DNA from: Nitzschia sp. pyKryTriq1
Taxonomy: Eukaryota > Bacillariophyta > Bacillariophyceae > Bacillariales > Bacillariaceae
NCBI GenBank assembly: GCA_956465555.1
Contig: OY101124.1
Coordinates: 1,240,001 to 1,304,000 of the forward strand
Length of the DNA: 64,000 nt
Direction of reading: 5' to 3'
Part shown: positions 4,184-54,779 of the stretch, piece after piece
Layout of the letters: every line of letters begins with the position of its first letter
How positions within the stretch are numbered: the stretch's first letter is position 1
The notes under the pieces: model-generated
What the model saw: the letters and a program-made list of their open reading frames with translations, nothing else
Database searches by the model: none
Told to the model about the DNA's origin: nothing
Translations under genes and position numbers: made by a program

Positions 4184-6796
4184 CTATAGCAAATCTGGAA
4201 ACAGTTCAGCATTAAGCCGAAATAGGTCAAGAAAGAGATCCTTGGCCTCCTGTTGTTCACCCATACTCCCCGCAGAATCGCCGTTCAATTGTAACCACGT
4301 GACGAACTCATCTAATTCAACAAGGCCATCTTTGTTGCGATCCATCTGCGTGAACGTCCTTTCGCAAAGCTCGTGGGCTTTGTGAAGAGTCTGAATATTT
4401 TGAACAGTGACATCTACATTTGCGTCAGCCGAATCGTATGATGAAGCGCCTCCTTCTTCGTCTTGGAAAAGAGAGGAGAGAAACGAAGGACAACCCAGGA
4501 AGCAAGCTTCAAACAAGTTGGCCATGTCGCCGGGGCTAAGCCGATTGTCACCATCAGTGTCAAAATATGCGACGGTCAACTTGGCCTTTTGCAAAATTGA
4601 CCCTGAACCGAGAACGATCATGGCCACAAAAAGTTCGGAAGAATCCAATACCTTGTTATTGCCTGCATCAACAAGGCCAAATAGTTTGTTTACAATGGCT
4701 TCTTGATTTCGACTCAGCATTGGGCCAATGACCCCACGAAAGTGGTCCTTGTCCAGCACAGCTTCCTCTCGAAGTACTGAAGAGTCATCTGAGAGTGACT
4801 GCCGTCTTGCCTTGCTCGCGGCGATAAGTTTCAAATGTTTCCGGTAAAGCATTGACATCGGTTCAGGCTGAAATCCGCTTTGTTGGTGGAAGTCACTGAT
4901 GGCGCGCCTTGAAATGTTAAACTGGGGAGGGGCTACAAGGAAAGGGCAGCCGATGAATGAATTGAGTTTGGGAACATCCAGTAGCGCAGGTATCTCTGAA
5001 AATGCAGGTGGCCATATTGTGATCTCATCTTGATAGACGATTTGGCAGATCTCTTTTTGTGTTATGATCAGTCGCCGAGATTGTCGAATTTCCTGCATTG
5101 TCGATTTCTTCGTTGACTGACGCAAGTGAGCGTACAATTCGTGGAACGTGATATGTTTCTTTCCACCCCGAAACAGAACCGGAATGAGCTCGCCATCAAG
5201 ATCAAAGTATTCGTCGAAGCGAACGATGGCCTGCTTCGAGAGCTCCCTGCAGCTTTCTCCAGGCGCAATCCGATGGAAGATAGCATGCAGTGCTTGGAAT
5301 TCAGGATCAACCGGCTGTGTCATTGTCCAAGGCGCACGTCTTTCTGAGAGCAAATATTCTCTTTCCGCGTACCTGTTGGGACGATTAAAAATCGGATTGC
5401 GGTGTGGGAAGCGGCCATATAAGCCAATAGCTTGGGCACGCTCGATTGCGACCTGGAGGAAATGCAGGCCGACCTGTCGATTGACATCTTTGTTCTCCTT
5501 ACTAGAAACCGCTATCATATCTGTACTCCACTTTGCCCATTTGTCCATGCTCAGGTCTTGCATATCCCTGTCTTCGATCTGACTAGCTGCCATGTAAACC
5601 CACATTCGTTCTACCACGTTATACACTTGCTCATCCCATTTGTTAGCACATATTGTGTTCACGAGTGCAGCGACTTCAGATTTTTTCCCAAATGCCAAGG
5701 GAGTCCCCCGATAAATAGTTCGAGGAAATTGATCCAAAATTATGAGCTTTGCCAAAGCTCCGTAGGGCTCTGTTTCCCACCCATCCAAAATCGATACTTT
5801 TACTCCCATACAGGTAGTATCACACCACTCCTTTTGGTAACGACGAAAGCGAGCACTTTCCGACTCGCCACCCACAAAGATCCCCACGCGCCACTGATTC
5901 ATTCGATCACGCCAGATTTCTTCATTCATGTCGGCAGGTTCTCGCATCGATCCCAGCCAAAAATCTAGAACAGCCTCTGGAGAATGGCTGGACTGAGACC
6001 CCTTTGTCATATTTCTGGTGTCACTTTTCCACCGAAAGAAAAGGTAGTCATCTTTGAAGTCATGGTCGTAAACAACATGATGAAAGCTCCCAAGCTCGGC
6101 TTGTAGTCTCCGACCCAATTGCACCGCATCCGACCGTCGGTCGACAATTTCGGTCCCTACCAAGAAGTCCACAGCTTCCGAGGCAACAAAGCACTGTGCA
6201 TACTTCTTCAAATGGTACATTCGATCTTTGACCAACACATTTTTCCGAAGCTTGGCGGCCACTCGAGTTAATTGGTCGATCGTCCAATCTGCTACAGGTA
6301 GCGAGGACGACGATCTCAACAGAGAATGTTGTGCGCCTTGTTGTGGTACCGGTATTGATTGTTCTTCTGCCGAGCATTCCCCGTGGCTTCTTCGCACAGC
6401 AGGATCGATGAAACGATAAAAAAGAAATGCGTCTTTAAACTCTTGCTCTCGGCAAACGTGTTCGAACAAATGGAACCTTTGACACAATTCTCGGCCCAGT
6501 GCCACCGCTTCCTGACGTTCTCGGGCATAACCCGCCATGATGAGATAATCGACAGCTTCTCTAGCGACAAATGTATTGCGATACACTTTGAAATGATAGC
6601 GATTGTTGCGGACGGGTACATTCTGTTCAAAATCACGGGCTATCATGTCTAGAGATAACGGGACGGGTCCACTATTGCTGGAGCGGATCGATAATCCTTC
6701 TTGTTGATCCAGTGACAGTGAAGTAGCCAGGGTCTGCTCACCAGAATGAGAATCTGCCCCTCTGGTCTTCATCGAGGGGCGGATCAGTTGGTTCAT
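4184..6796 (-). CDS. DEP-DEP-DUF924-EF-hand protein
   Basis: 870 aa, single exon, ATG start. Two DEP domains lie at about 45-140 and 165-255, both with the VAxEAVDxL core and a closing LFYRF/LFFRW. A complete DUF924 domain follows at about 270-500, recognised by VLDFWLG, the ILDQFPRTIYRG motif and the GRFPHRNPIF motif. After a ~230-residue linker come EF-hands near the C-terminus. One loop is degenerate (VDAGNNKVLDSSE), one reads DTDGDNRLSPGD, and one is canonical (DRNKDGLVELDE). DEP domains bind membranes or G-protein partners, EF-hands bind Ca2+, and DUF924 has no assigned reaction. A Ca2+-responsive, membrane-associated role is inferred only. No transmembrane segment or signal peptide is visible. 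Confidence 0.88.
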   Translation of the reverse strand: MNQLIRPSMKTRGADSHSGEQTLATSLSLDQQEGLSIRSSNSGPVPLSLDMIARDFEQNVPVRNNRYHFKVYRNTFVAREAVDYLIMAGYARERQEAVALGRELCQRFHLFEHVCREQEFKDAFLFYRFIDPAVRRSHGECSAEEQSIPVPQQGAQHSLLRSSSSLPVADWTIDQLTRVAAKLRKNVLVKDRMYHLKKYAQCFVASEAVDFLVGTEIVDRRSDAVQLGRRLQAELGSFHHVVYDHDFKDDYLFFRWKSDTRNMTKGSQSSHSPEAVLDFWLGSMREPADMNEEIWRDRMNQWRVGIFVGGESESARFRRYQKEWCDTTCMGVKVSILDGWETEPYGALAKLIILDQFPRTIYRGTPLAFGKKSEVAALVNTICANKWDEQVYNVVERMWVYMAASQIEDRDMQDLSMDKWAKWSTDMIAVSSKENKDVNRQVGLHFLQVAIERAQAIGLYGRFPHRNPIFNRPNRYAEREYLLSERRAPWTMTQPVDPEFQALHAIFHRIAPGESCRELSKQAIVRFDEYFDLDGELIPVLFRGGKKHITFHELYAHLRQSTKKSTMQEIRQSRRLIITQKEICQIVYQDEITIWPPAFSEIPALLDVPKLNSFIGCPFLVAPPQFNISRRAISDFHQQSGFQPEPMSMLYRKHLKLIAASKARRQSLSDDSSVLREEAVLDKDHFRGVIGPMLSRNQEAIVNKLFGLVDAGNNKVLDSSELFVAMIVLGSGSILQKAKLTVAYFDTDGDNRLSPGDMANLFEACFLGCPSFLSSLFQDEEGGASSYDSADANVDVTVQNIQTLHKAHELCERTFTQMDRNKDGLVELDEFVTWLQLNGDSAGSMGEQQEAKDLFLDLFRLNAELFPDLL

Positions 6797-12928: not shown

Positions 12929-15900
12929 ATGTCCATGGACGCCAGTTGGGATCTGCGTAGCACCGTGGCTTCACCGAGAAGTTTATGCGTCTACACTGCA
13001 GCTGCCGGATCGCAAGAAACGAATCCTTTTGAAGTCGCCGCCGGAGCAGTGGAAACTCCCACGGCCCAGGCAGTGGTGTTTGGCACGGAAAAGGGCAGTC
13101 TTCATTATCGAACATATCCAGCACCTACTTCGACCGGTGGTGGGGGCAGCAACAATAATAATGCACCGAGGCCTCCTCTAGGAGCTTCTACAGGGAGACG
13201 ACCGCCTTCCAATTTGCCGAGGGCCTACCTCCCGGTGGATTTAGCAGGTTCGAGCTTGCCGGGGGCAGTTGTTGGAGTGTTGCAAGCCAAGGGATCGCCG
13301 CCGCATCGGCCTGTCTTTTTAGTCGTGGTAGACGACAATCGGGGCAGCCATCAAGGCAGTAGTAATACCACCACAAACAGTGCGAGCAGTAGTGGTCACT
13401 ATGCGACGTTGTTGGTGACCTTGCAACAGGGAAGTTTTTCCAAATTGCCGACACCGCAACTTTCAAGTTTCGGAGGAGGAGGTGGTGGTGGTGGTGGTGG
13501 GCTGCCGCGAGTCTCTTGTGCCACGTCCCATGCTCGATGTGGATTCGTCATGGCCGGTGGTCGACGCTTGTACAGCATTCCGCCCGAAGCCTTTCTGGAA
13601 ACAGCGAGCTCTTCGAATAGCAAACGACGAGCCAGGGGAGGCTCTACTTCGCCCCTGATTGATTTTTCGAGTGTTGTTCTCCCATCTCCGGGAGCAAGAG
13701 GAGGTCAAGACGCTTTGCAACTGACAAGCGGGGGCAAAGTAGCGGTGGTCGCAGTTGGAAACAGTGTCTACGCTGTCGCGGGTCGAGAAGGGGGCGCAGA
13801 CAAGGACGATCCGACCTTGGTGGCGGCTGGAGGCGGTACTTCCAACGCTACTCCACCCGAGTGTGTTCGAGTCATCAGTTTTGCTCAATCGTCGCAAGTC
13901 CATCCTGTTATTGTACTGGATATTCAAGATCCTAGTATGGATCCAGACTGGTCCAGTTTACTCTGTGCTAATGGACGGGAATGCGCCGTCATTGACTTGC
14001 AGTATGCTCAGCATCAAGTTTCTTGCGCTCCCCCTCGCAATGGAGTGGTGACAATCTCTTCGCCAATCTTGGCTGCTGCGACCAGCTGGCCATGGCTCGC
14101 TCTCTTGACCTCGGATGGCCTTATAAGCATTCGAAGTCCGAGTTGCTTGGCGATTCCGTTGAAAACGGTGGAAGTCGGTACCAGACCCAATGACTTTTTT
14201 GTCCTTAGAAGCTTCTACGACGATTCTACCACACACAACGTACCCTATATCGTGGCGGGAAGCTACTCGGGTCAAGCCAAAGTTTTACACTGTCAGCCAG
14301 ACACTGCTCAAGATTTGGCAGATCGATTAATGCGGCATTCGATTGATGCCTTTGGATCCAATGGCTTTCCACGAAGTGAGTTGGCCGAAGCCCTGCATGC
14401 GAGCTTCACGGCTACCTCGTACGTGGGTCCAGAGCCAACCGATCACGCCCGGGACTTGCTGCGACAATATTTGGAAGCCATATTGGGACTCGCCGACTTT
14501 GAGGGGGGAGGAGCTACAGGATGGCCGACCGAACGAACCGCCTCTTCGGGCGACCAACCTCATTCCCCCAAAACGGCAACCTTCCACATGGATTCGCCCT
14601 CATCTTCTGCTTTTGCAGATGCTTCTCGACAAATTGGGTCAACAGCGCCTTTTACTACTAGTAGTACAACCAGGGCGGAGTCTTCCCCTGTGGTAACGGC
14701 GGATACACCCAATGCGCTTGTGGCTGGAACCGCCTTGTTGTGTCTGGTATGTACCCAGTTGAGTCCCTCCCCCAAGGCATCGCTGGCGAATCGTGCCGCC
14801 AAGGCCTGCGCTGCCAAAATGGGGGTCTTGGTAGACGATGGATCGAAGACTGGATCTTCAGCAAGCGTGAGCCTCTCTGCAATTCGTGTGTGCGAGCTGG
14901 TTACTGACCGACTCTTGGAGGAAAGCAGCACAGCCGCAGAGAATGCAGGGATCTCTCAAGTTCGAGTTGGCAAGTACATATCACCTCGCGTTCCATCATC
15001 CTCGACCGGCTCGTCACAGCAATTCTCTTCTCCCTCGATGTTGTCCATGGATTTTGTCGAGGCATCTACGTGGATACTACGATCCTGTGGAAAACACGAA
15101 CGTGCTATCGATGTCTTGTATGCTCGAATGCAGCAGCAACAACAGCTTCAGGGCCAACCGACACGATCGTCATTATCGGGAGGATTCTGGTCCCCCATTA
15201 AGTACGAGAGTTACACCGCAACTCATTTGGGTGAGCTTTGGGCTACGTCTGAGGACGCGGCTTGTGAGTTAGTGTTACGGTCTCCTGCCACTACCCGCCT
15301 GTTGGAACAAAACCCTCGCATGGGATTACATGTTTTTACTGTCTTGCATCCTCAAAATTCATCACAGTGGAAACAACTACTCGCGAAAGACGATCCTCTG
15401 GCTCATCCTTCGTATCCATCACAAGTTGTTCAGCTGCTTAAGGGAATCCAACCAAAAGTCACAGAGCCCCCTTCGGAAACGGGTCCTGCCATGTTACCGA
15501 TGGATACAGGTAGAGCCTTGGCAGTAGCATACTTGGAATCGGCCGTTGGAATCGATACGGGGCATCCGACGGAAGAGGATGCCTTCGATTTGGTGGCACC
15601 CGATGAACACCAAGAAGAGCGAATTGCAGATTTCCATGACGAGCTCTGCTATTTATTGCTGGAGGGTGTCATTTCGGAACGGGGGGATGATCCGCCCCAA
15701 CGGCATCCGAATCATCATCGTCAGCCTCCAGACCAACAGGAGGAGGACACTACGGAATTAGGAAAGATCTACCGACAAAAACTTCGTCGATTTTTGCAGT
15801 GGCCGCTAGCTAAAGTCCGATCAGAACGGCTCTTGACTTCACTACCCAAATCATTTTTACAGGAACAAGCCTTGGTGTTAGGTCGCTTGGGCAAACACGA

Positions 15901-16885
15901 GGAGGCCCTTCGGATCCTGTACATTGACTGCAAGAGTATGGATCTAGCGCTGGAGTACTGTGATGTGAGATACGAGCGCCAACAAGCTAAACTCGAAGCT
16001 GAACGATCAAGGTTAGCAGCTGCGGGTCTGCTTGAAGAACGCGATGACCTAAATCCATTTGCCCCTGATGGTGGTTATCGATCTCCGGGAGAGGGATGCG
16101 CGTATCTCCCTCTCGTCAAGGTTGCCCTTGAGTCGGACGCGGATAAACAACGAGGAACAACTGCGGCCATTCAAGTTCTCGCACTTCGAAGAAGTGTCAT
16201 TGACCGTGCCGCTGCTCTGCGGTTACTGCCCAAGAATGTCCCTGTCGCAGCTGTGGCCCGACCTTTCTTGATTCCCGCACTCGTGGAAAGCGAGTCGCAA
16301 GCTCGACGCCTCAAAGTGGTTTCCTCGCTGTTGAGAGCCCGGCACAATGCTCTCAAGCAGCAACTAACCGACGCCCAACTGAAGGCGCAAGCACACCTTC
16401 ACGTCGTCCCACAATTACGTTCCATGAATCTGGGAGAGCCGCTACACTCGAGCAAGGCATTCAAGGCACGCCCATCGTCCTCCGCGTCCTCGACCTTCCC
16501 CGATGTGGTAATCGTAAAGCACTTCTTCCCGCGACATGTGGTCATTCAAGCCAAGGTCACCAATGGTTCCGCGGCGGTCGATGGGAGAGCTCTTGGCAAC
16601 GTCGCCTTTGTGGTGGCAGAGAGTTCGGAAGAAGCTATTCAGCCATCTACTTTGGTTCCAATCAAGGTTTTACCGTTCAAGGCGACAGGTTCGACTTGGT
16701 GCGTCCTGGTGGCAGCACCTAGTCGGATGGAAGGTACGGCTATTTTGACATGCGAACTGCGATACACTGTAATGGGTGTCGATAGCGCGACTGGAACACC
16801 ATTGAGTTTTGGTGCCGGAGTCAGCGGCCGAACCTTTGTCGAAGAGTTGCAAGATCTGGATGTCGTTTCATCCAACTTTTCTTGA
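12929..16885 (+). CDS. VPS39/TGFBRAP1-like tethering protein with C-terminal gamma-COP-appendage-like domain
   Basis: 1318 aa, single exon. The N-terminal ~480 residues look like a divergent beta-propeller (CNH-type) with Ser/Gly-rich inserts. The helical C-terminal half carries the Vps39 signatures. The first, about residues 950-1010, includes ERLLTSLP, then ALVLGRLGKHEEALRILY and ALEYCD. The second, about 1080-1160, includes RLLPKNVPVAAVARPFL and SSLLRARHNALKQQL. These mark the VPS39/VAM6 or TGFBRAP1/VPS3 family, subunits of HOPS or CORVET that tether late endosomes and vacuoles; no RING is seen. Residues 1190-1318 then match the gamma-COP appendage beta-sandwich: VKHFFPRHVVIQ, LPFKATGSTW, LRYTV followed by a D-x-x-TG-x-P pattern, and an acidic VEELQDLDV ending. 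The fusion lies in one uninterrupted frame. Confidence 0.85.
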   Translation: MSMDASWDLRSTVASPRSLCVYTAAAGSQETNPFEVAAGAVETPTAQAVVFGTEKGSLHYRTYPAPTSTGGGGSNNNNAPRPPLGASTGRRPPSNLPRAYLPVDLAGSSLPGAVVGVLQAKGSPPHRPVFLVVVDDNRGSHQGSSNTTTNSASSSGHYATLLVTLQQGSFSKLPTPQLSSFGGGGGGGGGGLPRVSCATSHARCGFVMAGGRRLYSIPPEAFLETASSSNSKRRARGGSTSPLIDFSSVVLPSPGARGGQDALQLTSGGKVAVVAVGNSVYAVAGREGGADKDDPTLVAAGGGTSNATPPECVRVISFAQSSQVHPVIVLDIQDPSMDPDWSSLLCANGRECAVIDLQYAQHQVSCAPPRNGVVTISSPILAAATSWPWLALLTSDGLISIRSPSCLAIPLKTVEVGTRPNDFFVLRSFYDDSTTHNVPYIVAGSYSGQAKVLHCQPDTAQDLADRLMRHSIDAFGSNGFPRSELAEALHASFTATSYVGPEPTDHARDLLRQYLEAILGLADFEGGGATGWPTERTASSGDQPHSPKTATFHMDSPSSSAFADASRQIGSTAPFTTSSTTRAESSPVVTADTPNALVAGTALLCLVCTQLSPSPKASLANRAAKACAAKMGVLVDDGSKTGSSASVSLSAIRVCELVTDRLLEESSTAAENAGISQVRVGKYISPRVPSSSTGSSQQFSSPSMLSMDFVEASTWILRSCGKHERAIDVLYARMQQQQQLQGQPTRSSLSGGFWSPIKYESYTATHLGELWATSEDAACELVLRSPATTRLLEQNPRMGLHVFTVLHPQNSSQWKQLLAKDDPLAHPSYPSQVVQLLKGIQPKVTEPPSETGPAMLPMDTGRALAVAYLESAVGIDTGHPTEEDAFDLVAPDEHQEERIADFHDELCYLLLEGVISERGDDPPQRHPNHHRQPPDQQEEDTTELGKIYRQKLRRFLQWPLAKVRSERLLTSLPKSFLQEQALVLGRLGKHEEALRILYIDCKSMDLALEYCDVRYERQQAKLEAERSRLAAAGLLEERDDLNPFAPDGGYRSPGEGCAYLPLVKVALESDADKQRGTTAAIQVLALRRSVIDRAAALRLLPKNVPVAAVARPFLIPALVESESQARRLKVVSSLLRARHNALKQQLTDAQLKAQAHLHVVPQLRSMNLGEPLHSSKAFKARPSSSASSTFPDVVIVKHFFPRHVVIQAKVTNGSAAVDGRALGNVAFVVAESSEEAIQPSTLVPIKVLPFKATGSTWCVLVAAPSRMEGTAILTCELRYTVMGVDSATGTPLSFGAGVSGRTFVEELQDLDVVSSNFS

Positions 16886-25361: not shown

Positions 25362-26341
25362 AACCATAATTTTTCCAAATGGAGGTTTTCCTCTTCGACC
25401 TTTGAAATATGAATGATCGACACGCAGTCTGCAATCGTCGTGTAAAATTTTCACGATGGACAAGTTCCCGATTAGTACAGTACAGCGAGAGCATTAACTT
25501 TCGTTTGGACGATGGTGCAACGAAAGGCGACAGCAAGAAGCACCACGCGATAGGCAAGGATCGAAGGAGAGCACCGATCAATACTACGAATACAAACTGA
25601 ACGACCGTCTTCGACCTATCAGTTCCAAATAGTACCTCGTACGTTTGCTTTCATCTTTCGCCCAACAAAAGTATAGGTATTTAAAAAGTAACTATTCGTG
25701 AGGCCTTCGTGTATGTGTACGTGTTTCTTCCACGGATTCGTATTGTTTATTTTCCAAAGAGATAGACATCGTCAAAGTAAACTTTTTCCTTGCTCCAGAA
25801 CGAAGGACTGTGTCAAATAAAAAAATGTGGAACCCTGTCAATAGGAGGACCAACAGTACCAGTCGAGTGAATCGTCCATACCAGTCGGTTATTTTTCTAG
25901 CTCGAGGTGTCAAATAAAATGTAAGTGACCATCCGTCGACCGTCGTGCGTGCGTCTATCTTGCTTCTACTGTACGAGTATCATCATGATACTAACTTTCA
26001 ACTTACCGGTACATGGTACGATGGCTAATTTATCGTTGTCTTGTGAAAACCACTTTCACTGCTTGTTGGTTGTTCCAAACAAACATGAATTGGGGCAGTG
26101 GTTGTCCGTTCGTTTGTTGACGATGATGATGATCATGATTATTATTCGGAAGCAACAGAGACCCCGCGCGCGTGTTGTTTTGTGTCGTGCATCCCGCCAA
26201 AAAAATCAGTCAAGGTGCGCGCCGTGTACGAAAGTTGCCGCCGGTACATCTCAGGCAGGTTTTGTGATTACAGAAATTCATAAATCTTGATCCTTGATCC
26301 GGAAGAGTCTCTACCACAAAATCCACCGCAAGTTTTGCATA
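25362..26341. other. Intergenic with repeated GTGTCAAATAAA motif
   Basis: About 980 bp between two same-strand genes. It holds two copies of GTGTCAAATAAAA (25810-25822 and 25907-25919), the same 12-mer seen beside the secreted aldo/keto reductase. A TACCGGTA site lies near 26005 and an ATG-rich low-complexity run near 26125. A 73-codon minus-strand frame with a hydrophobic middle exists here but has no ATG at its start, so it is not called. Confidence 0.4.
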
Positions 26342-28006
26342 ATGGGTCGATCTGTGTCGCCCAACGCAGTCCTCTGCTTGTTGTTTGGTCTGTCGATGAC
26401 GAGCTCGTGGTCGAGCAGCCACGTCCAGGCACAAACAGAAGATGTGAGCACCACCACTTGTGAATTGAACGGTCTAATATTCCAACGCGGCGAAAGTCTC
26501 GGGGGAAGTTTTGTTACACGATGTGGGCCAGCCGATGTGTATCCCTGTTTTTGTAATCCAGACTTGAGTCAACAAGTTGAATGCCCTTACTGCGGATTTG
26601 CTTTGGAGGGAGGAGGCTTGCTCTGCGCCAAGGATCTTGAAATCCATACGTTCGCCGATATCGATGGCAATTCCAAAACCTGTGAATGTTCTGCACCTCT
26701 TGGAGGGGCTTCACCGACATTTGATTGTGAAATAGAAGACAACCAATCTCTCAACCAGCCTGGTGTTGAGGATGGTGGGAGCTGTACATTCGACATGCCC
26801 GATGGTAGCACTATTTCGTTTCTGAGTGGAGAACCAATACTATCTGGTGTTTTTTTCAATCGATGCGGCGATGATTTCCCATGTTATTGCGATCAAACTT
26901 CAGATGATCAAGTGTCTTGTCCTTATTGTCACTTCCCTGCGATGGGGGGAGAAATGTTTTGTGCTCGCAATGGGCAAGTCGTTGCTCTTCAAGACGAGGA
27001 CGGTGTCAATCAGATGTGCACTTGTACCATTGCTCAAGACGATGGAGTGGTTTCCTCTAATTGTATCACGTCTGACGGCGATGCTGTACCTACAACTACT
27101 CCCGTGGATCAGTCAAAACCCATTGATCAATCGGATGTATGTACACTCGAACTGGGAGATGGTACTCAGGTCATGACGTTTCAAAACGGAGAGTCTTTCG
27201 GTGAATATTTGTCGACACGATGTGGAAGTGCCAGCGACTTTCCGTGCTTTTGTAATACGGCGCTACCCAACAAAGTGGATTGTCCCTATTGTGGCTTTGT
27301 GAAAGGCGACGGTGAGCTCGTTTGCGCTAGGAGCGATGAGACCATTGATTTTGTCGATGGCGATAAGAACTACCGAACTTGCACCTGTGAAATTGTTGCT
27401 CCCGGCCAAGAACCCATTCGTACCTGCGAAGATGGAGATATGCCTCCCACTCCAGCACCCACAGATCCATCATCATTGGTCGAAAATCCCACTAGTAATA
27501 ACGACGGGAACGTGTGCTTTGCCACCGGGCGCAACGGAGAGATTGTGGCTGTTCAGGACGGAGAGTCCTTTGGGGACCTGATTCCCCCCGGTATTTGTGG
27601 ATCGACGGATGAATGGCCTGCCTTTTGCAATGTTGCATTGGTAGGCACTAATACTATTTCACGACAAGAAGGCAATGTCGACACGCCGCCAGCACTTTTT
27701 GAGTACCCCTACTGTATTTTCGAGAATACAAAGTCGGGAACGCCCGTGTGCGCCAAGAGCACTGCTGGTGGGCAGGGGGTGACCTTTGTCGATGATTCAG
27801 GGATCACCCAACGATGCTCCTGTACTTATTTGAGTCCGTCGTTGGGCGGCGCCCAATCGTCATGCATCCCCGAAGTGGTCGTGGTGGACGATCCATCGAC
27901 GACGAAGACTCCCACGCCTTCGGCAGCGCCGCAAAAGGACACATCACGCACCATGATCTTCTTGACAGTTAGTACGATCCTCTGTGCTGTGGAGCTCTTT
28001 CAATGA
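26342..28006 (+). CDS. Secreted four-repeat Cys-rich protein, probably GPI-anchored
   Basis: 554 aa from the first ATG (the frame extends to an upstream TTG). A signal peptide (VLCLLFGLSM core, cleavage near VQA-Q) is followed by four tandem ~100-residue Cys-rich repeats at about 40-135, 147-247, 266-364 and 391-515. Each has C, then GE-S, then RCG, then a P-C-F-CN motif, CPYCGF, CAR/CAK, FxDxDG and TCxC. Repeat 4 is divergent, keeping PYC but losing the first Cys of CPYC and of PCFC. Repeats are joined by Thr/Pro-rich linkers. The chain ends with a hydrophobic tail after TSRTM, as in GPI-anchored proteins. I do not recognise the family; a cell-surface or frustule-associated role is inferred from layout only. 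Confidence 0.85.
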   Translation: MGRSVSPNAVLCLLFGLSMTSSWSSSHVQAQTEDVSTTTCELNGLIFQRGESLGGSFVTRCGPADVYPCFCNPDLSQQVECPYCGFALEGGGLLCAKDLEIHTFADIDGNSKTCECSAPLGGASPTFDCEIEDNQSLNQPGVEDGGSCTFDMPDGSTISFLSGEPILSGVFFNRCGDDFPCYCDQTSDDQVSCPYCHFPAMGGEMFCARNGQVVALQDEDGVNQMCTCTIAQDDGVVSSNCITSDGDAVPTTTPVDQSKPIDQSDVCTLELGDGTQVMTFQNGESFGEYLSTRCGSASDFPCFCNTALPNKVDCPYCGFVKGDGELVCARSDETIDFVDGDKNYRTCTCEIVAPGQEPIRTCEDGDMPPTPAPTDPSSLVENPTSNNDGNVCFATGRNGEIVAVQDGESFGDLIPPGICGSTDEWPAFCNVALVGTNTISRQEGNVDTPPALFEYPYCIFENTKSGTPVCAKSTAGGQGVTFVDDSGITQRCSCTYLSPSLGGAQSSCIPEVVVVDDPSTTKTPTPSAAPQKDTSRTMIFLTVSTILCAVELFQ

Positions 28007-29664: not shown

Positions 29665-32600
29665 CTACTTACCAAAAACAGAACGAAATCCAAGAGCGAC
29701 ATCTGAAACATCATGAAACGGTGAGTACCCGTTGGACTTGGACCGGGCACGTTTGACAGCCTCGTGCAACAAGCGATCAAAGATGCTCAGAGTTGCAATG
29801 GGGCACCAGAAATGGTAACCCTTGCACGGTTTTATCGTAGCAGGAAAGAACGCATGGAACGCCGAAGTGCATTGGTACTTCGCCAGGTACAGGGCGGTAC
29901 GGTAACATTCCAGTTCCACATTCTGGGCCGTAGAGTCGTTTCCATCACTCCGACTCGGGATCAACGCCAGAGAGCTGCTGCCTATTTCGCTACCACTATT
30001 TCCATTGCTGGTGGAGGATGTCAAGGAAACCACACCAACACCAGCGTACTTTTCCCGCCTTCGTTTGTTGACGCGTAGCAGACATTCGACCACTGGACGA
30101 AAATCGCGCTTGTCGCAAGCCTCGACCAGCGTAACAAGGATCTTCGACAAGTCCTCGTGGTCCCATACAGTAGAGTAGTAGCCTTGAAGGTTAAAACGGG
30201 CAAGAAGTGGGTAATCACCGAAAGCGTCCAAGGAACTATTGTTTTCCTCAGTCGTGCTGATGCCAGAAGACGCATTCTCAGCAACGCCGCCGCCATTTTT
30301 ACTTTTCATCCCGGCCTCGTTGAATTGATCAGTATCAAGCAGCGAAGTCATCACCATAGCCGCACTCACACAACCACGAAGTGCTATCTGATAATCCCAC
30401 CCTACCATTGCACAGTAGTGCTTGTTGTCTTTTACAACAGATGAAACTGGCAGTGGCAAAGGAAGCGAGAATCTGGCAGAATACCACCAAAGATTGTAGA
30501 AGACTTCCGGGTCGATCTCTCGCAGCCGGTCTCTCTCCAAGATACCCTCACCATGTTCTTCGATGTGACGTTCGAGGCCAGATCGAAGAGTTGAGGGACT
30601 GATATATGTCACATATGAAGCTTCTGGTAATTCTTCGATCGTTGAGCGCATTTGAGGAGGCAAAGTGGCAAAGTCGGCTGCGGCATCACTGACATCGCTT
30701 CTGCAGGATGGAATCTGTGACAAGGGCGATGCTTGTTTGGAACCAATAGCCATGGCAGCCTCCACCGACAAAGCTCTGTACCCCAACGCAGGTATCAATA
30801 GTTCCCCGCATCGAGGACAATTGATGGCACCAGGAATATCGTTTTCACCTCCGACAACATCCCAGCCAGCCTGAACTTCTTCCTCCAGTGGAATATATCC
30901 GCATGCTGTTCACGATAGGCAAGCAGGGACAACGTGAGGTGAGGAGATCATGATTACTACAATCCTGATTCTGGGGATCGTGTACTTACATCTGCAGCTC
31001 TTCGTTCGAGACCACATGGCTACTAAGCGGGTCTGGTCTGGGGCCAATGGGGGAGCTTTGGCGGTATTCGAGTCCTCTTGTCGCGAAGGGGCAAGCGACC
31101 ATGAAGTTGCTACGGGGAGCCAGGGTTTGCTGCTCTTCTTCCGAGTTCGGTCTCCACTCTTACCACCTTCTTGAGTGGAAGCAGGCTCGTCGTGGCGTGT
31201 AGATGCATCTTTCTCGCCCATGCTTTTCTGGCGCCAACGGCGTCCAGAATCTTCCAAATTGGCAAGGTTCCTATCCAGCGAAGCCAGCGCCGCCTCTGGA
31301 TCTGCACAGCTTTTCATCAGAGTACCAAAAGCCATGTCTCGGCTGAGAGCTTCTGTCATTTCGACATCCCCCGCTTCATCGTCTGAAAGGCCGGTAGATC
31401 TTTGCTTGGAATAGCCCTCTGCCAAAGCCTTCGTGTATTGTCCAAGTGTCACGGCACTTGGGAATATTCCATCTGATCGAAGAAGTCCGAACAACTTCAC
31501 CAATTCCGTGCGTCTATCACTCCTGGTCCGCCCACATGCTACAATAAGCGCTCTGTATGCAGCCTCGTCCGGTACGATCCGTTGCTTGCTACGCAAAAGC
31601 CTCAGGGCACCAAGGGCTCGGAGCAGATACTTGGACTGCTGCTCGTGGGTAATAGAGGGCTGGGCCACCAAAGCTGGAATGCACAGTAACCACGCTCCCA
31701 AAAAATGAGATCCCATCAACTTAGGTAGCTGCCAAAGACATCGCCGTTGCGTTGGGAGACCACGGTAAGTGGTAGCAAGCTTTCGTCTCCTGTCCGCCTC
31801 CTCAATCTCTTTTCGACTTCGGGTAAGCATTGGAGTCGGCGCTGTTGTCATTTCCACAAGCCACGATTCAGGCTGACGCGGGAGATAGGAAGTCGGGTTT
31901 AATCGGTCAGGAAAGGTAGGGTTTCCATCAACACAGTACATAAAGCGTGACCCAACGGGAAGTCCACTGCGGGATGGAAGCGTCACCCAATCCCCGGTCG
32001 CATTCTTGGCGAACTCTGAGTGGCGCAAATTCCCGTCTCCAAAGTCAGACGAAACGAAAGAACCCTTCAAAAGAAAACCGCTGCTATCCGTGTCACTCCC
32101 GTGTCTAGAGTCACCGTCGAAGCTTTTCTCGTTGATTATACTTTGCGTCGTCTCACTTGCTGACTGGTCTACAAGCAAGCTGTAGAGAAGCTGTGGATGT
32201 TCGTTCTCGGCGGTGTGTACTGTTGCGACGTCTCCGCCGAGACGACCATAAGGGACAGATGTCGAATGAAACTCAGCCAGGCATTCGTCGAACAGTAGGC
32301 AGTGTACGTCACTAGCCTCGGTCCGACGCTGAATAAATGATTGGAAGAGTTGAGTCGAGACAAGCGTACCAAGAAATGCCGCCTTTTCTTCCGAGGCCGC
32401 AGCCAAGAATCCCTTTGCATCGAACCACTCGTTTCCGCTGATCAAAAAGTCTACGTCTGGAACCACCAAATATCGTTCGTATCCACCTAGTACCGAACAG
32501 AAAAATCGTAAAAATGCATCACGAATAGCACGATCGTCCAATGGCACCTTGTGCTCTTGGCTCAAAGTTCCAGTGTCTTGAACAGGAGTGGACGGCATCG

Positions 32601-35600
32601 TTGCTTCGAATGCAGGATCGACAAGCGAGTCGAGCGGCTCTTGTCCGGGTACAATGCCGGCATCGCGGCAAAGAGTCTCAAGCTCAGAGACAAGATTCGA
32701 TCGAGGACCCGGTGGGATGATTCCCCATGAACTGTTTAGGACAGTCATCCTATCACCGCTGCAATCGACACTACCCGTATCCAAATCGACAATTGTGCTG
32801 TCCTCTGGCATGTTCGCCCGAACTTCTGCGGCCAGTCCGGTAGGGGTACCATCGTCGTGGATCCCAACGAAAATCGCCCCAGGAAAATCCAGGCATGACA
32901 TAAATGGTTCTGTTAGTCTTGGTACGTATGGTGCACAGAGATCGAAAGGAAACAGCAACGATCTTAATAATTCACAAATATCCAGCACCAGCGACGGGCG
33001 AGTCGACATGACAATAACCTATCGATCCATGAAATCAAGTTAGACGATAACCATTTTCAAATCGCTCCAAAGTTGCATGAAACTCACCTTTCTTTCCAGA
33101 GCTAGAAAGCCCAAAACTACCGTGACGATGGTAGGAATATCCAAGCAAGAAACGAGTCTCTCATATGGAAGATCCAAAAGCGGAAGATCTTTAGAAGGTG
33201 GCGACCACAACATCATGGGGATATTAAAAGTCGGAAGAGGAATCAGCACACTGGGTCCGCCAGGCTTGGGGATCGGCACTGCCAGAAGCAAATGAGAGAT
33301 ATATCGTTCCAAAGGTAGGTCGGAAGTGGAACCAGAAACGCTGTGTAGATGGGACAGGAAGCGACGAAATGCGCTCCAATAAGGAAATCGGCTAACCAAG
33401 CAAATAGTCTTGTTTTCAAATGTTGTCATTTCATCGAATCCTGTCAAGAGCATGTTTGATTCGTCATCATCGTCATCACTTTCATCGTCCAAGTCGTGGA
33501 AAGCTTGATCGGCGGCAACATTGCTGTCGGAGGATGAAAACCCACCCTGCTGCCTTCTTCGACGCCTCTCTCGTTTCGCCCAGAATTTGGCGTGCGGCAG
33601 AGAAACACGCCGGCGATTTTCAGAGAGTCGGTCTAGTTGCTTTCGCTTTTGCTGAGTCAAAGGTTCCATAAATGAAACACACGAGACATAAATGGAATCT
33701 CCGCGTTCATTCTTGACGACAAAACCATAATATTGTGGAAGGGGAGCATTGCAGAATTGGGCCCGATACAATCGACATCCAGTCGGATAGCAAAACATGG
33801 GTAATTCCTCTTCAGGAAGAGGCAGTCCCTTGTAGTTCTTGTACGGAAATCGATCCAATACAGTAGTGGAGAAGGCAGCATCGCAGAAACCCAGAGGAGC
33901 ATTGCGGCGTACTATTACGCACGTCTTGCCAAGTACCGATCGGCTCGACTTGGGTTTGGACCGCTGTTGCATCGGGCTGGAGGAGGAGGGTTCGGATGAC
34001 GTATTCGCAGCGATCCAAGCAGACTTTTCTAGCAATGTCATTCCAGCGTCGTCATCTTCTTCCTCAAAGGGGTCCACTTCTTCGTAGGGCATGACAGGCC
34101 TACCCATGTCATCGGTAAAGGTAACAGCCATTTCGACAATGGCTGGATCCTCGTGAAAGCGCTCTTCTTCGCCGATTCGTTGGCGTCGAATAGCTAAAAT
34201 CGGAACGAAAAGGTATTCATCGTCTTCATCGTCCATGAGATCCACCCTGGTTCCAACTGGGAACATTTTTGGTTCTAGCTGATCCCGCCAAGAGGAGGGA
34301 GATGTACATAGAGACGCTCGTTTGCGTTCCACGGCTTCGATCCCCGAACTAGTATCGTCCATTTCACCCGGTTCTTTGGGAGGAAACAGAAAGGTTTTGT
34401 AAGGATTTTCGGGAGTAGTGGGAGGATGGCTTGGAAATCGTAATTCACGGTAAGGCTCTGGAATCGACCACTCTTCCATACCGGATGGCAACGATAGTAG
34501 GGATTTCAATGGGACGGGTTCACCAAAGTCCGCACTGCTCTGACTGGCAATGGAAGCAATGGATGATGATTGATGATGCTGATGAGGAGAGTTTCGAAGA
34601 ACCCGACTTTGAAAGGTTTGTTTTCCCGCCTCGGCAACTCGAAGTAATGCCGCCGCCGCTCCCTTTTGAGATACAGTGCTCCCCCCAGCCATCGACATTA
34701 CAGAAGTATTACTTGTCTTTTCGGATCCAGCATCCCCTCTCATTGACTGTACTTCGTTAGTGTTGTGATCCGGTGGAAGCGTGGCCTTGTGCAGTCGTAC
34801 GTGGTAGAGTTCCAAGTCGGCAATGGCTGGGCGTGTAGACTCGTCAGGGGAGCGCCGGCGGAAGGATAGATAGAACTTCTTCTTGGATGGGCTCGAGTAG
34901 GCAACGAGACGCTGTTGGAACGTCGACTGGACCTTTTCACGTAGGTCTTTCAAAGGAGTCGACGACTTTTTGTTGCGTCCCTCTAGTTGTCGCTGCTGTT
35001 CCGCCACAAGTTCGGCAAATCTACCAGTCAAGCCATGCATAGGATCCAGGTTGGCATCCCACACCTGTCCCCTGGACCAGAGCGGCGGAGGGATCTCATT
35101 GTGATTGTCGTGATTCTCTGGTGTCGACGGTGGGGCAGATAGTGGTCGAGTTTGTTGAATGACAGTCCAACCCTCTAGCTCCACCGTTGGTTGTTGGTCT
35201 CCTTCCGCATTCGCAGTTCCCAGGATGATCGAAGATGCCACATCCGAGGGACTGGGAGAGGTGGGCAGTGTTACAGGATAAGAGGGCCGATGATTCTGCT
35301 TGGCGGCGCCGGCGTTGGGATACACGACAGTCGTTGGAAACTGCTGTTGTGGATGTTGTGTGCTACTCGCACTACGACTCTCGTCTGCCACCCAAACAGC
35401 ACATTCGACAATTTCGCGGTAAAATCGTTCCAGCAATCTTGCGTCGTTTTCCTCCACGTAACTCGTACCAAAATCATTAGTATTAATATTCTGAGCACCA
35501 TTGGTAGTAGTGGCGGCGGCTGTTCCTCCTCCTGCCACCCCCGGGCTCTCCGGATCGGGCAGCGAGGAAGAAGAAGAAGAAGACGCTTGCTGTTTTTGGG

Positions 35601-35817
35601 CGTGTCGCCACACCAATTCTTCTCCCACTCCCAGTGTGGCAAAATAATCGGCGACCCCCACCTGTTGTTTCGGATAAGCTGTAGCAACAGCAACAGCAGC
35701 AGCAGTAGTTGTTGTTGTAGTAGTACCTCCGTTTTTGTTTCGCGACGGTCTAGGCGGCGACAAACCTTGCTGGTCATTGCCGTCCAATGCCGAGAGAGGC
35801 TGATCATCATCTGTCAT
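29665..35817 (-). CDS. DENND4-family Rab guanine-nucleotide exchange factor
   Basis: Three exons: 35817-33088, 33018-30990 and 30905-29665, joined by GT-AG introns of 69 and 84 nt. Phases fit exactly and give 1999 aa. A ~600-residue disordered N-terminus leads to a uDENN region (about 615-710, with RFPYKNYKGLPLP and FCYPTGCRLY). The cDENN starts near 780 (CLVSRFPYW, then HLLLAVPIPKPG) and crosses the first splice at FLALERK-VIVMSTRPSL, the expected core. dDENN follows. At about 1380-1450 lies a PPR-like helical pair, a DENND4 trait. The second splice completes a zinc ribbon (CRSCGY, LEEEVQAGW, CPRCGELLIPAL) also typical of DENND4. Family members activate Rab10-type GTPases in secretory traffic. 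The Rab here is unknown. Confidence 0.88.
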
Positions 35818-44745: not shown

Positions 44746-45442
44746 GTGGGTGGTCATTTATGTTCAGTACCGAGCACGTAGAGAAGGGAACTGATGTAGT
44801 CATCTGATGTAACTTGGTAAAAAGGACGGTAGAGATTGGGTATAGTCCAGCAACACCAGTAGCGAAAATATTACGTCAGTCAGCTAACTTTCTCGTGAAG
44901 ATCACCGACTATTCGTTGGTGTTGCTGTGCAAGTATTACAACAACAACATTATCTTGAAGTAGACTTCTCTCTCTAGAACAGTTTCTAATATGATACCTA
45001 CTACGAGAGCAGATATCGAGCTCTGTAGACTTCGTAGAGTGGAGACAGACCCATGCCGTCTACTACCGCTACGTTCGTTGGAAGTCAAATAAGGCTCAGG
45101 GTCGAAAAGGTCGACAATTATGACTCGATGGACTTCCTGTAGTTTCCCTTACTGCTGTGTATTGCCGTCCGCACCGCGCAAACAATCGAAGATCCTTATT
45201 GCGAATGAATGAAGATGACGCATGGCGCGATACCTACTCTCAATTCTCAATCACCGGTCACCGGAAGACGTTTCCTCTCTTGTCCTTATCCTCAGATTGA
45301 CGACTCCTCCTCTTTCATCTGATTCTGGAGTGCCTTCACTGTACAACAAGAAGTGTGAGGACTCGAGAGGATAGTCAACGCTTTGTCGACTCCTCCTCCT
45401 CCTCCAAGTGGGCACAGCGTCCGAGAAATCCAAGAAGCAAAA
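44746..45442. other. Intergenic, no gene seen
   Basis: About 700 bp before the beta-galactosidase start codon, holding its promoter. The frame of that gene is open upstream to a stop at 45356 but without an ATG. Only short CTCTCTAG-like low-complexity DNA is seen. Confidence 0.4.
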
Positions 45443-49871
<4,429 letters not shown>

Positions 49872-53592: not shown

Positions 53593-53959
53593 TGAACGTT
53601 GTAGGCGAGAAATGATTATGAAGCTGATGATGATTCAATTCGTCCAACTGTTAAAGACTCCCTGCCGTGTGGCCGGACGTAGTATTGGGTGAGATGGAGG
53701 ATACAGTAGCACCGTCACCGATACAGGTATTAGGTCGGCGTCAACTCATTGTTTGTCATCTCAATGTCCATCCTCGCTTTTATCGGCAATCGGCATGCTT
53801 ATATCGTTGTATCTTTATTTGACGTCCCTCTACTGTACTTATGTACCGGTACAGTACACAGTGTGAGTTCAAGTACCCGTATGTGGCGCGTTCATTTTGT
53901 GCGGTCCACGGTCCACGCGCTATCACGGTTCGCAGTCCGCGCAGCTCGACTATTACGGT

Positions 53960-54392
53960 AGACCGACCGACCGACCGACCGACCGACCGACCGACCGACC
54001 GACCGACCGACCGACCGACCGACCGACCGACCGACCGACCGACCGACCGACCGACTGACGGACTGACTGACCGACTGACCGACTGACCGACTGACCGACT
54101 GACCGACTGACCGACTGACCGACTGACCGACTGACCGACTGACCGACTGACCGACTGACCGACTGACCGACTGACCGACTGACCGACTGACCGACTGACC
54201 GACTGACCGACTGACCGACTGACCGACTGACCGACTGACCGACTGACCGACTGACCGACTGACCGACTGACCGACTGACCGACTGACCGACTGACCGACT
54301 GACCGACTGACCGACTGACCGACTGACCGACCGACCGACCGACCGACCGACCGACCGACCGACCGACCGACCGACCGACCGACCGACCGACC
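53960..54392. repeat. GACC / GACCGACT compound satellite
   Basis: About 430 bp in three blocks: roughly 23 GACC units, then roughly 32 units of the 8-mer GACCGACT (about 54069-54324), then roughly 17 GACC units. A few variant units (GACTGACGGACT) mark the first junction. The layout suggests that one GACC pair mutated to GACCGACT and then expanded inside the older array. Both strands stay open as artefactual Asp-Arg-Pro-Thr or Ser-Val-Gly-Arg repeats. Confidence 0.95.
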
Positions 54393-54489
54393 GTTTACCA
54401 GTAACCAGTACGTGTACGTTGTACGTACCAGACTATAATCAGATCCACCACTCGTTGGAAGACGACGACTCCTCACACTGCTTGTTGTG

Positions 54490-54779
54490 CTTCTTGCTAT
54501 TACTACGCAGAGCACCTGAAGGAAGAGGAGGTTCAGTACAGTCCCCAAATCATTCGAGATCGTACGACCGAGGTTGAAATTTTATGGCAAGGCAAAGCAA
54601 TTAGTTGTATGAAGACGTTGTTCGGAGTCCTACGTTGCCAGTTATGCATGGAAGAGAAGCTTGCAATTCTACGTGCCCACTGGGAACAGCCCGAGCTACT
54701 ACTCAACTCAATTATTGAGGTCGAGGAAAGCTGCAAGCATAGGACTAGGTTCCATCGTCTCTTGAGATGTGCAGATTAG
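54490..54779 (+). mobile_element. Fossil retroelement tail (Penelope-like or related polyprotein end)
   Basis: The frame ending at 54779 carries the zinc-knuckle-like end common to Penelope-like and related retroelement polyproteins: KAISCMKTL, then CQLCMEEKLAILRAH, LLNS and SCKHRTRFHRLL. Only this terminal piece is visible; the reverse transcriptase part is absent, so the copy is broken. The GACC satellite abuts its left side. Confidence 0.5.

What the first reader, a model, noticed from the sequence alone, without database searches (positions are those of the whole stretch)
16496..16885. VPS39-type tether fused to a gamma-COP appendage-like domain
Residues 1190-1318 of the VPS39/TGFBRAP1-like protein follow, block by block, the beta-sandwich half of the COPI gamma-COP appendage: VKH-x-F-x2-H-(I/V)-V, then LP(F/Y)-x3-GST(W/Y), then (F/Y)TV-x3-D-x2-TG-x-P, and a closing acidic LEDLEV-like end. 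The platform half is missing. The frame is continuous from the Vps39 domain. Appendage domains recruit accessory proteins to coats, so a HOPS/CORVET subunit carrying one would link vesicle tethering to coat-style cargo or ArfGAP binding. I know of no described case. The family matches are from memory of both families.
Basis: partly seen in the sequence, partly recalled or inferred. Interest (0 to 1): 0.8.

Follow-up and report, generated by a model that had tools for sequence, protein, structure and literature searches.

The report
Vacuole tether carrying COPI ear domain
A diatom-like genome encodes what looks like a membrane-tethering protein in which half of the "ear" of a different vesicle coat stands where the usual zinc-finger tail would be, a combination that could join two machines normally studied apart, though what it binds is untested.

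Summary
One uninterrupted 1318-codon ORF (12929-16885, +) joins a Vps39/Vps3-family solenoid end to a gamma-COP appendage beta-sandwich. The ear is Pfam PF08752 (whole protein 45.5 bits, cut-off 25, E 1.1e-11; last 167 residues 51.3 bits, 1.9e-13), with 48 of 138 aligned positions identical to gamma-COP 1r4x. It starts nearer residue 1154 than 1190; tblastn finds no platform half in the window (best E 1.2). The solenoid (aa 973-1145) matches a recalled human VPS39 stretch (33%, pairwise E 1e-12; 0 of 2000 shuffles as good), but is sub-threshold in Pfam, weak against yeast Vps39 and without a PDB hit. The Vps39 zinc finger is not found; the ear sits in its place. The ArfGAP idea is not supported: that site lies on the missing platform, while the retained sandwich binds a beta-propeller in COPI. 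I favour the ear as a replacement clamp on a propeller of the HOPS/CORVET core; COPI docking is the main rival. Structure prediction failed (pLDDT 32 and 39), no relatives could be found, and function is inferred.

The parts
12929..16885 (+). Whole ORF, 1318 aa, single open frame: N-terminal region, alpha-solenoid end of Vps39/Vps3 family, gamma-COP-type ear
   Evidence: coding signal
12929..14368 (+). N-terminal 480 aa, presumed beta-propeller by family analogy; not detected by any search
   Evidence: no relevant Pfam hit or PDB hit; inference only
15845..16363 (+). Vps39/Vps3-family C-terminal solenoid block, aa 973-1145
   Evidence: 33% identity to recalled human VPS39 C-terminus, E 1e-12; 0 of 2000 shuffles; TPR_Vps41 sub-threshold 0.0036-0.013 in three of four stretches that hold the matched residues or part of the block, none for aa 1000-1190
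16298..16417 (+). Candidate long C-terminal helix, aa 1124-1163, equivalent of the helix by which Vps39/Vps3 pair with Vps11
   Evidence: helix 425-464 in a low-confidence model (block pLDDT 39-59); role by analogy
16388..16885 (+). gamma-COP appendage beta-sandwich (Ig-like) subdomain, aa 1154-1318, in the place of the Vps39 zinc finger; platform subdomain not found
   Evidence: PF08752 E 1.9e-13, 1.1e-11 in full protein; 48 of 138 aligned positions identical to 1r4x
16835..16867 (+). Presumed last sandwich strand, FVEELQDLDVV, aa 1303-1313, aligned to gamma-COP LEDLEV; protein ends 5 aa later
   Evidence: global alignment to 1r4x letters; outside the Pfam match

Best explanation
SHOWN BY SEQUENCE: a Vps39/Vps3-family C-terminal solenoid followed, where human VPS39 has its zinc finger, by the beta-sandwich half of a gamma-COP appendage. 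INFERRED: it is a HOPS or CORVET subunit. Its long C-terminal helix pairs with the Vps11 helix and RING as in yeast, and the ear, on a short serine-rich linker, acts as a new C-terminal clamp by docking through the conserved base of its sandwich onto a beta-propeller of the core (Vps18 or Vps11), the way the gamma-COP sandwich docks on the second propeller of beta'-COP. The ear would then fix the position of the Rab-binding arm, the job done in yeast by the Vps39 C-terminal portion on the Vps11 RING and the Vps18 propeller. My estimates: fusion protein about 0.9; membership of a HOPS/CORVET complex about 0.75; propeller clamp within that complex about 0.4.
For: Ear identity. Solenoid identity; human VPS39 itself hits TPR_Vps41 at profile 257-299, also below the cut-off (19.9 bits against 27), where this protein hits 255-294. 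Zinc finger not found: no zf-Vps39_C hit, the only CxxC is at aa 605, and the only two Cys after aa 1100 lie within the ear. The retained half is the propeller-binding half and the lost half carries the ArfGAP site: PMC5482573 section 9. The Vps39 C-terminus contacts the Vps11 RING and Vps18 propeller: PMC9592082 passages. Yeast Vps3 lacks anything after the long helix, with a smaller contact area and weaker association: PMC11187117 passages.
Against: No structure: both single-sequence models are unusable. No propeller detected at the N-terminus. The PDB search with aa 850-1190 did not list yeast Vps39, which is in the library (only CWF19-like protein 2, E 0.25); the match to yeast Vps39 is weak (E 0.003; 1 of 2000 shuffles as good). 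Pfam's only hit in the solenoid is sub-threshold and vanishes for aa 1000-1190. Most of the human VPS39 letters are unverified recall. No relative was found, so conservation of the fusion or of a binding surface is unknown. Other HOPS/CORVET subunits were not sought in the window, and the base-of-sandwich residues could not be mapped without coordinates.
Confidence: 0.4

Rival explanations
1. The ear binds COPI itself: it mimics the gamma-COP sandwich and docks on beta'-COP, or competes with gamma-COP for it, so that the tether captures COPI-coated or partly coated carriers at a vacuole or endosome.
For: The gamma-COP sandwich binds the second propeller of beta'-COP through a conserved base (PMC5482573); this ear matches gamma-COP and no other Pfam family listed (ear alone, E<=10).
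Against: Only 48 of 138 aligned positions are identical to gamma-COP 1r4x; the base could not be mapped; COPI acts in the Golgi/ER part of the pathway (abstract of PMC5482573).
Confidence: 0.25
2. The ear works like a platform-less adaptor ear (gamma-adaptin/GGA type) and recruits accessory proteins carrying short hydrophobic motifs.
For: Related appendages without platforms bind ligands, and AP2 appendages have a second site on the sandwich (PMC2262067 passages).
Against: No adaptin-ear family is listed for the ear; the same paper notes that ligand-contact residues differ between adaptins and COP appendages.
Confidence: 0.2
3. The ear is carried passively or is a decaying remnant in place of a dispensable zinc finger.
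For: Single genome, no demonstration of conservation; a role of the VPS39 zinc finger is put only as a hypothesis in PMC7384125 (abstract and introduction).
Against: All sandwich blocks are kept, the frame is open and coding signal in the ear (0.17-0.22) is like that of the rest of the gene (0.07-0.26); in yeast HOPS the Vps39 portion after the helix is reported to contact the Vps11 RING tightly (PMC11187117).
Confidence: 0.1
4. Assembly or annotation chimera of two genes.
For: Only one assembly, no reads or transcripts; coding signal is ambiguous in the linker, aa 1160-1195.
Against: A chimera would have to fall in frame at the zinc-finger position, without a stop or a GTRNG donor at the junction, and end gamma-COP about at the sandwich/platform border with no platform found elsewhere in the window.
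Confidence: 0.05

Closest known systems
VPS39/Vam6 (HOPS) and Vps3/TGFBRAP1 (CORVET)
   Same: C-terminal solenoid block up to the long helix
   Different: Zinc finger (zf-Vps39_C) not found, ear in its place; Vps3 of yeast has nothing after the helix
COPI gamma-COP appendage, beta-sandwich subdomain (PF08752)
   Same: Sandwich, PF08752 E 1.9e-13
   Different: No adaptin-type trunk listed; no platform, no FxxxW, so no ArfGAP site of the known kind
Platform-less ears: gamma-adaptin ear and GGA GAE domain (recalled; platform-less gamma-AP1 mentioned in PMC2262067)
   Same: Ig-like sandwich alone at the C-terminus of a trafficking protein
   Different: Sequence matches gamma-COP; no adaptin ear family listed
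AP-3 delta ear binding to Vps41 of HOPS (recalled)
   Same: Links an appendage to HOPS
   Different: There the ear is on the coat and acts in trans; here it is fused in cis to the Vps39-like protein

Membership tests
gamma-COP appendage sandwich (PF08752) | Profile match above the curated cut-off | tested here: met
   45.5 and 51.3 bits against 25
gamma-COP appendage sandwich (PF08752) | Ig-like beta-sandwich fold | tested here: inconclusive
   model pLDDT 31.7
gamma-COP appendage (whole) | Platform subdomain with FxxxW-type site | tested here: not met
   no FxxxW in the ear; platform not found in the window, best tblastn E 1.2
gamma-COP subunit | Adaptin-type trunk | tested here: not met
   no Adaptin_N listed in the whole-protein Pfam scan at E<=10
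Vps39/Vps3 family | C-terminal solenoid sequence | tested here: met
   human VPS39 (recalled letters) 33%, E 1e-12; weak to yeast (0.003), no PDB hit, Pfam sub-threshold
Vps39/Vps3 family | N-terminal CNH/beta-propeller | tested here: inconclusive
   nothing found in aa 1-480; this part was not modelled
Vps39 (HOPS) | C-terminal zinc finger zf-Vps39_C | tested here: not met
   no hit, no CxxC after aa 605; yeast Vps3 also has nothing after the helix
HOPS/CORVET subunit | Physical association with Vps11/Vps18 and a Rab | not testable with these tools
   needs biochemistry

The most novel reading that the evidence does not exclude
A coat appendage has been moved onto a tether, so that one polypeptide both binds a Rab on the vacuole or endosome and docks on a coat propeller (beta'-COP), giving these algae a direct COPI-to-HOPS/CORVET link in place of the usual zinc-finger assembly contact.
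Probability: 0.2. Interest if true: 0.8.

Novelty: new variant of a known kind. Interest (0 to 1): 0.6.

Why it matters
HOPS/CORVET and COPI are built from similar propeller, solenoid and appendage parts, but I found no report of one protein joining a Vps39-type tether to a coat appendage. The searches were: open-access papers only, seen as listings; the lists (15 of 754; 15 of 40) were cut; passages of a few papers were read. If conserved, it is a natural domain swap that tests whether the Vps39 C-terminus is just an assembly clamp, replaceable by another propeller-binding module, or a place where coats and tethers meet.

Tried and rejected
ArfGAP recruitment through the ear: set aside because the published site is on the missing platform. 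A separate downstream ear gene: thought unlikely, since no stop or GTRNG donor separates it, though coding signal is ambiguous in the linker. A split gamma-COP gene nearby: tblastn found no platform in the window. Chance resemblance: rejected by profile E-values and shuffles. NCBIfam, a prokaryote library, gave no hit for the whole protein at E<=1. Structure route: two single-sequence AlphaFold2 jobs gave pLDDT 31.7 and 38.9, so no fold search was made. Relatives: five scans of viral contigs, two of genome contigs (45, 59) and one tblastn of phages (24) found none; these collections are viral or prokaryotic, so this says nothing about diatoms. The Pfam name as a paper term returned nothing. 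PMC3785458 (12 of 13 passages with my terms shown) traces Vps3/Vps39 across eukaryotes and holds neither 'appendage' nor 'gamma-COP' in its main text. PMC10307638 (passages) lists appendage and HOPS domains in Asgard archaea; the passages shown mention no such fusion. Vps39 as opposed to Vps3/TGFBRAP1 was not attempted by tree, for lack of sequences.

Full report
WHAT IS THERE. The window reads as a diatom-like nuclear genome: a DUF6824 protein (E 7e-22; that this family is typical of diatoms is recalled) and long ORFs on both strands. No genome is held for it and the organism was not identified. The ORF 12929-16885 (+) encodes 1318 aa without a stop.

THE EAR. In the whole protein, Pfam lists two families: TPR_Vps41, below its cut-off, and PF08752, 'Coatomer gamma subunit appendage platform subdomain', at 45.5 bits (cut-off 25), E 1.1e-11, aa 1154-1291. 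With the last 167 residues alone PF08752 reaches 51.3 bits, E 1.9e-13. For the 129-aa stretch given, no other family is listed up to E 10, so among known families it is gamma-COP-like; no adaptin, beta-COP or GGA ear family appears. PDB sequence search ranks gamma-COP first (1pzd and 1r4x; 1r4x alone). Against this, the search with the whole protein does not list it, and full-length gamma-1 5a1u_E was listed in neither nor 52. Smith-Waterman against 1r4x: score 103; shuffles mean 26.7, maximum 52, 0 of 2000 reach it; the reversed ear scores 24, and ear against VPS39 scores 36, which 82 of 2000 shuffles reach. A global alignment to 1r4x has 48 of 138 aligned positions identical. Despite the Pfam name, the matched part is the amino-terminal Ig-like sandwich: appendages are a sandwich followed by a platform that carries the FxxxW motif (PMC2262067 passages). 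In the alignment this protein ends before the FEAAW of 1r4x, and a tblastn of the 1r4x platform over the whole window gives nothing better than E 1.2. The exact sandwich/platform border used there is my own.

THE TETHER PART. Pfam shows only TPR_Vps41, below its cut-off: E 0.013 for the whole protein, 0.0045 for aa 440-1180, 0.0036 for aa 850-1190 and no hit for aa 1000-1190. Human VPS39 itself hits TPR_Vps41 at nearly the same profile positions and also below the cut-off, so the weak Pfam hit is what a true family member gives. Against this, a PDB search with aa 850-1190 lists no Vps39, yeast Vps39 matches only weakly (E 0.003; 1 of 2000 shuffles as good), and no CNH/propeller or PDB relative is seen for aa 1-480. 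I call it a Vps39/Vps3-family protein and leave the choice between the two open.

THE JUNCTION. In human VPS39 the solenoid is followed by a zinc finger (PMC7384125). Here the solenoid match ends at aa 1145 and PF08752 begins at 1154. The only CxxC of the protein is at aa 605, and the only Cys after 1100 (1258, 1275) lie in the ear. So the ear stands where the zinc finger would be. Coding log-odds in the ORF's frame is the highest of the three forward frames in 15 of 16 segments. In the serine-rich linker, aa 1160-1195, it ties with frame 2 (0.08 each) and the reverse strand is higher (0.15); at aa 600-700 the reverse strand equals it (0.13). There is no GTRNG-type donor between 16250 and 16530; five GTRAG sites lie elsewhere in the ORF, the last at 15965 inside the solenoid, so an intron in the gene is not excluded by sequence alone.

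MECHANISM. [quoted passage not shown] In yeast HOPS the Vps39 C-terminus pairs with the Vps11 helix and RING, and its long helix touches the Vps18 propeller (PMC9592082, passages). In CORVET, Vps3 has nothing after the helix, and its association is weaker (PMC11187117, passages). The simplest reading is that the ear is a substitute clamp, a propeller-binding module at the spot where Vps39 reaches the core. This is inference: no structure or interaction is shown. COPI docking is the main rival; a motif-binding ear is the next.

LIMITS. The collections searched are viral, phage and prokaryotic, so eight searches without a relative say nothing about other diatoms. Protein architecture databases could not be consulted, so the same fusion may already be listed there without comment. 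The literature searches cover open-access papers only; I saw listings, passages and single sections, not whole texts.

Noticed in passing
window 4184-6796 (-): One ORF with two DEP domains, a DUF924 domain and EF-hands, an unusual combination in my recollection.
   Followed up: no
window 30910-33009 and 33040-35817 (-): A DENN protein is split over two ORFs (uDENN and start of DENN upstream, rest of DENN and dDENN downstream), suggesting a short intron or frameshift near 33010-33040.
   Followed up: partly
window 45383-49871 (+): Three consecutive ORFs read like one LacZ-type beta-galactosidase interrupted by introns (by eye, not searched).
   Followed up: no
window 53892-54548 (-): ORF made largely of GRSV/GQSVS-type repeats, probably a translated simple DNA repeat rather than a gene.
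   Followed up: no
window 26294-28006 (+): Cys-rich ORF (signal-peptide-like start by eye) with an IFT144 zinc-finger Pfam hit over 16 residues (31.3 bits, cut-off 27.5, E 1.9e-7); I suspect it is spurious.
   Followed up: no
aa 32 and 1042 of the ORF at 12929: Two NPF tripeptides, the motif bound by EH domains (recalled); may be chance.
   Followed up: no
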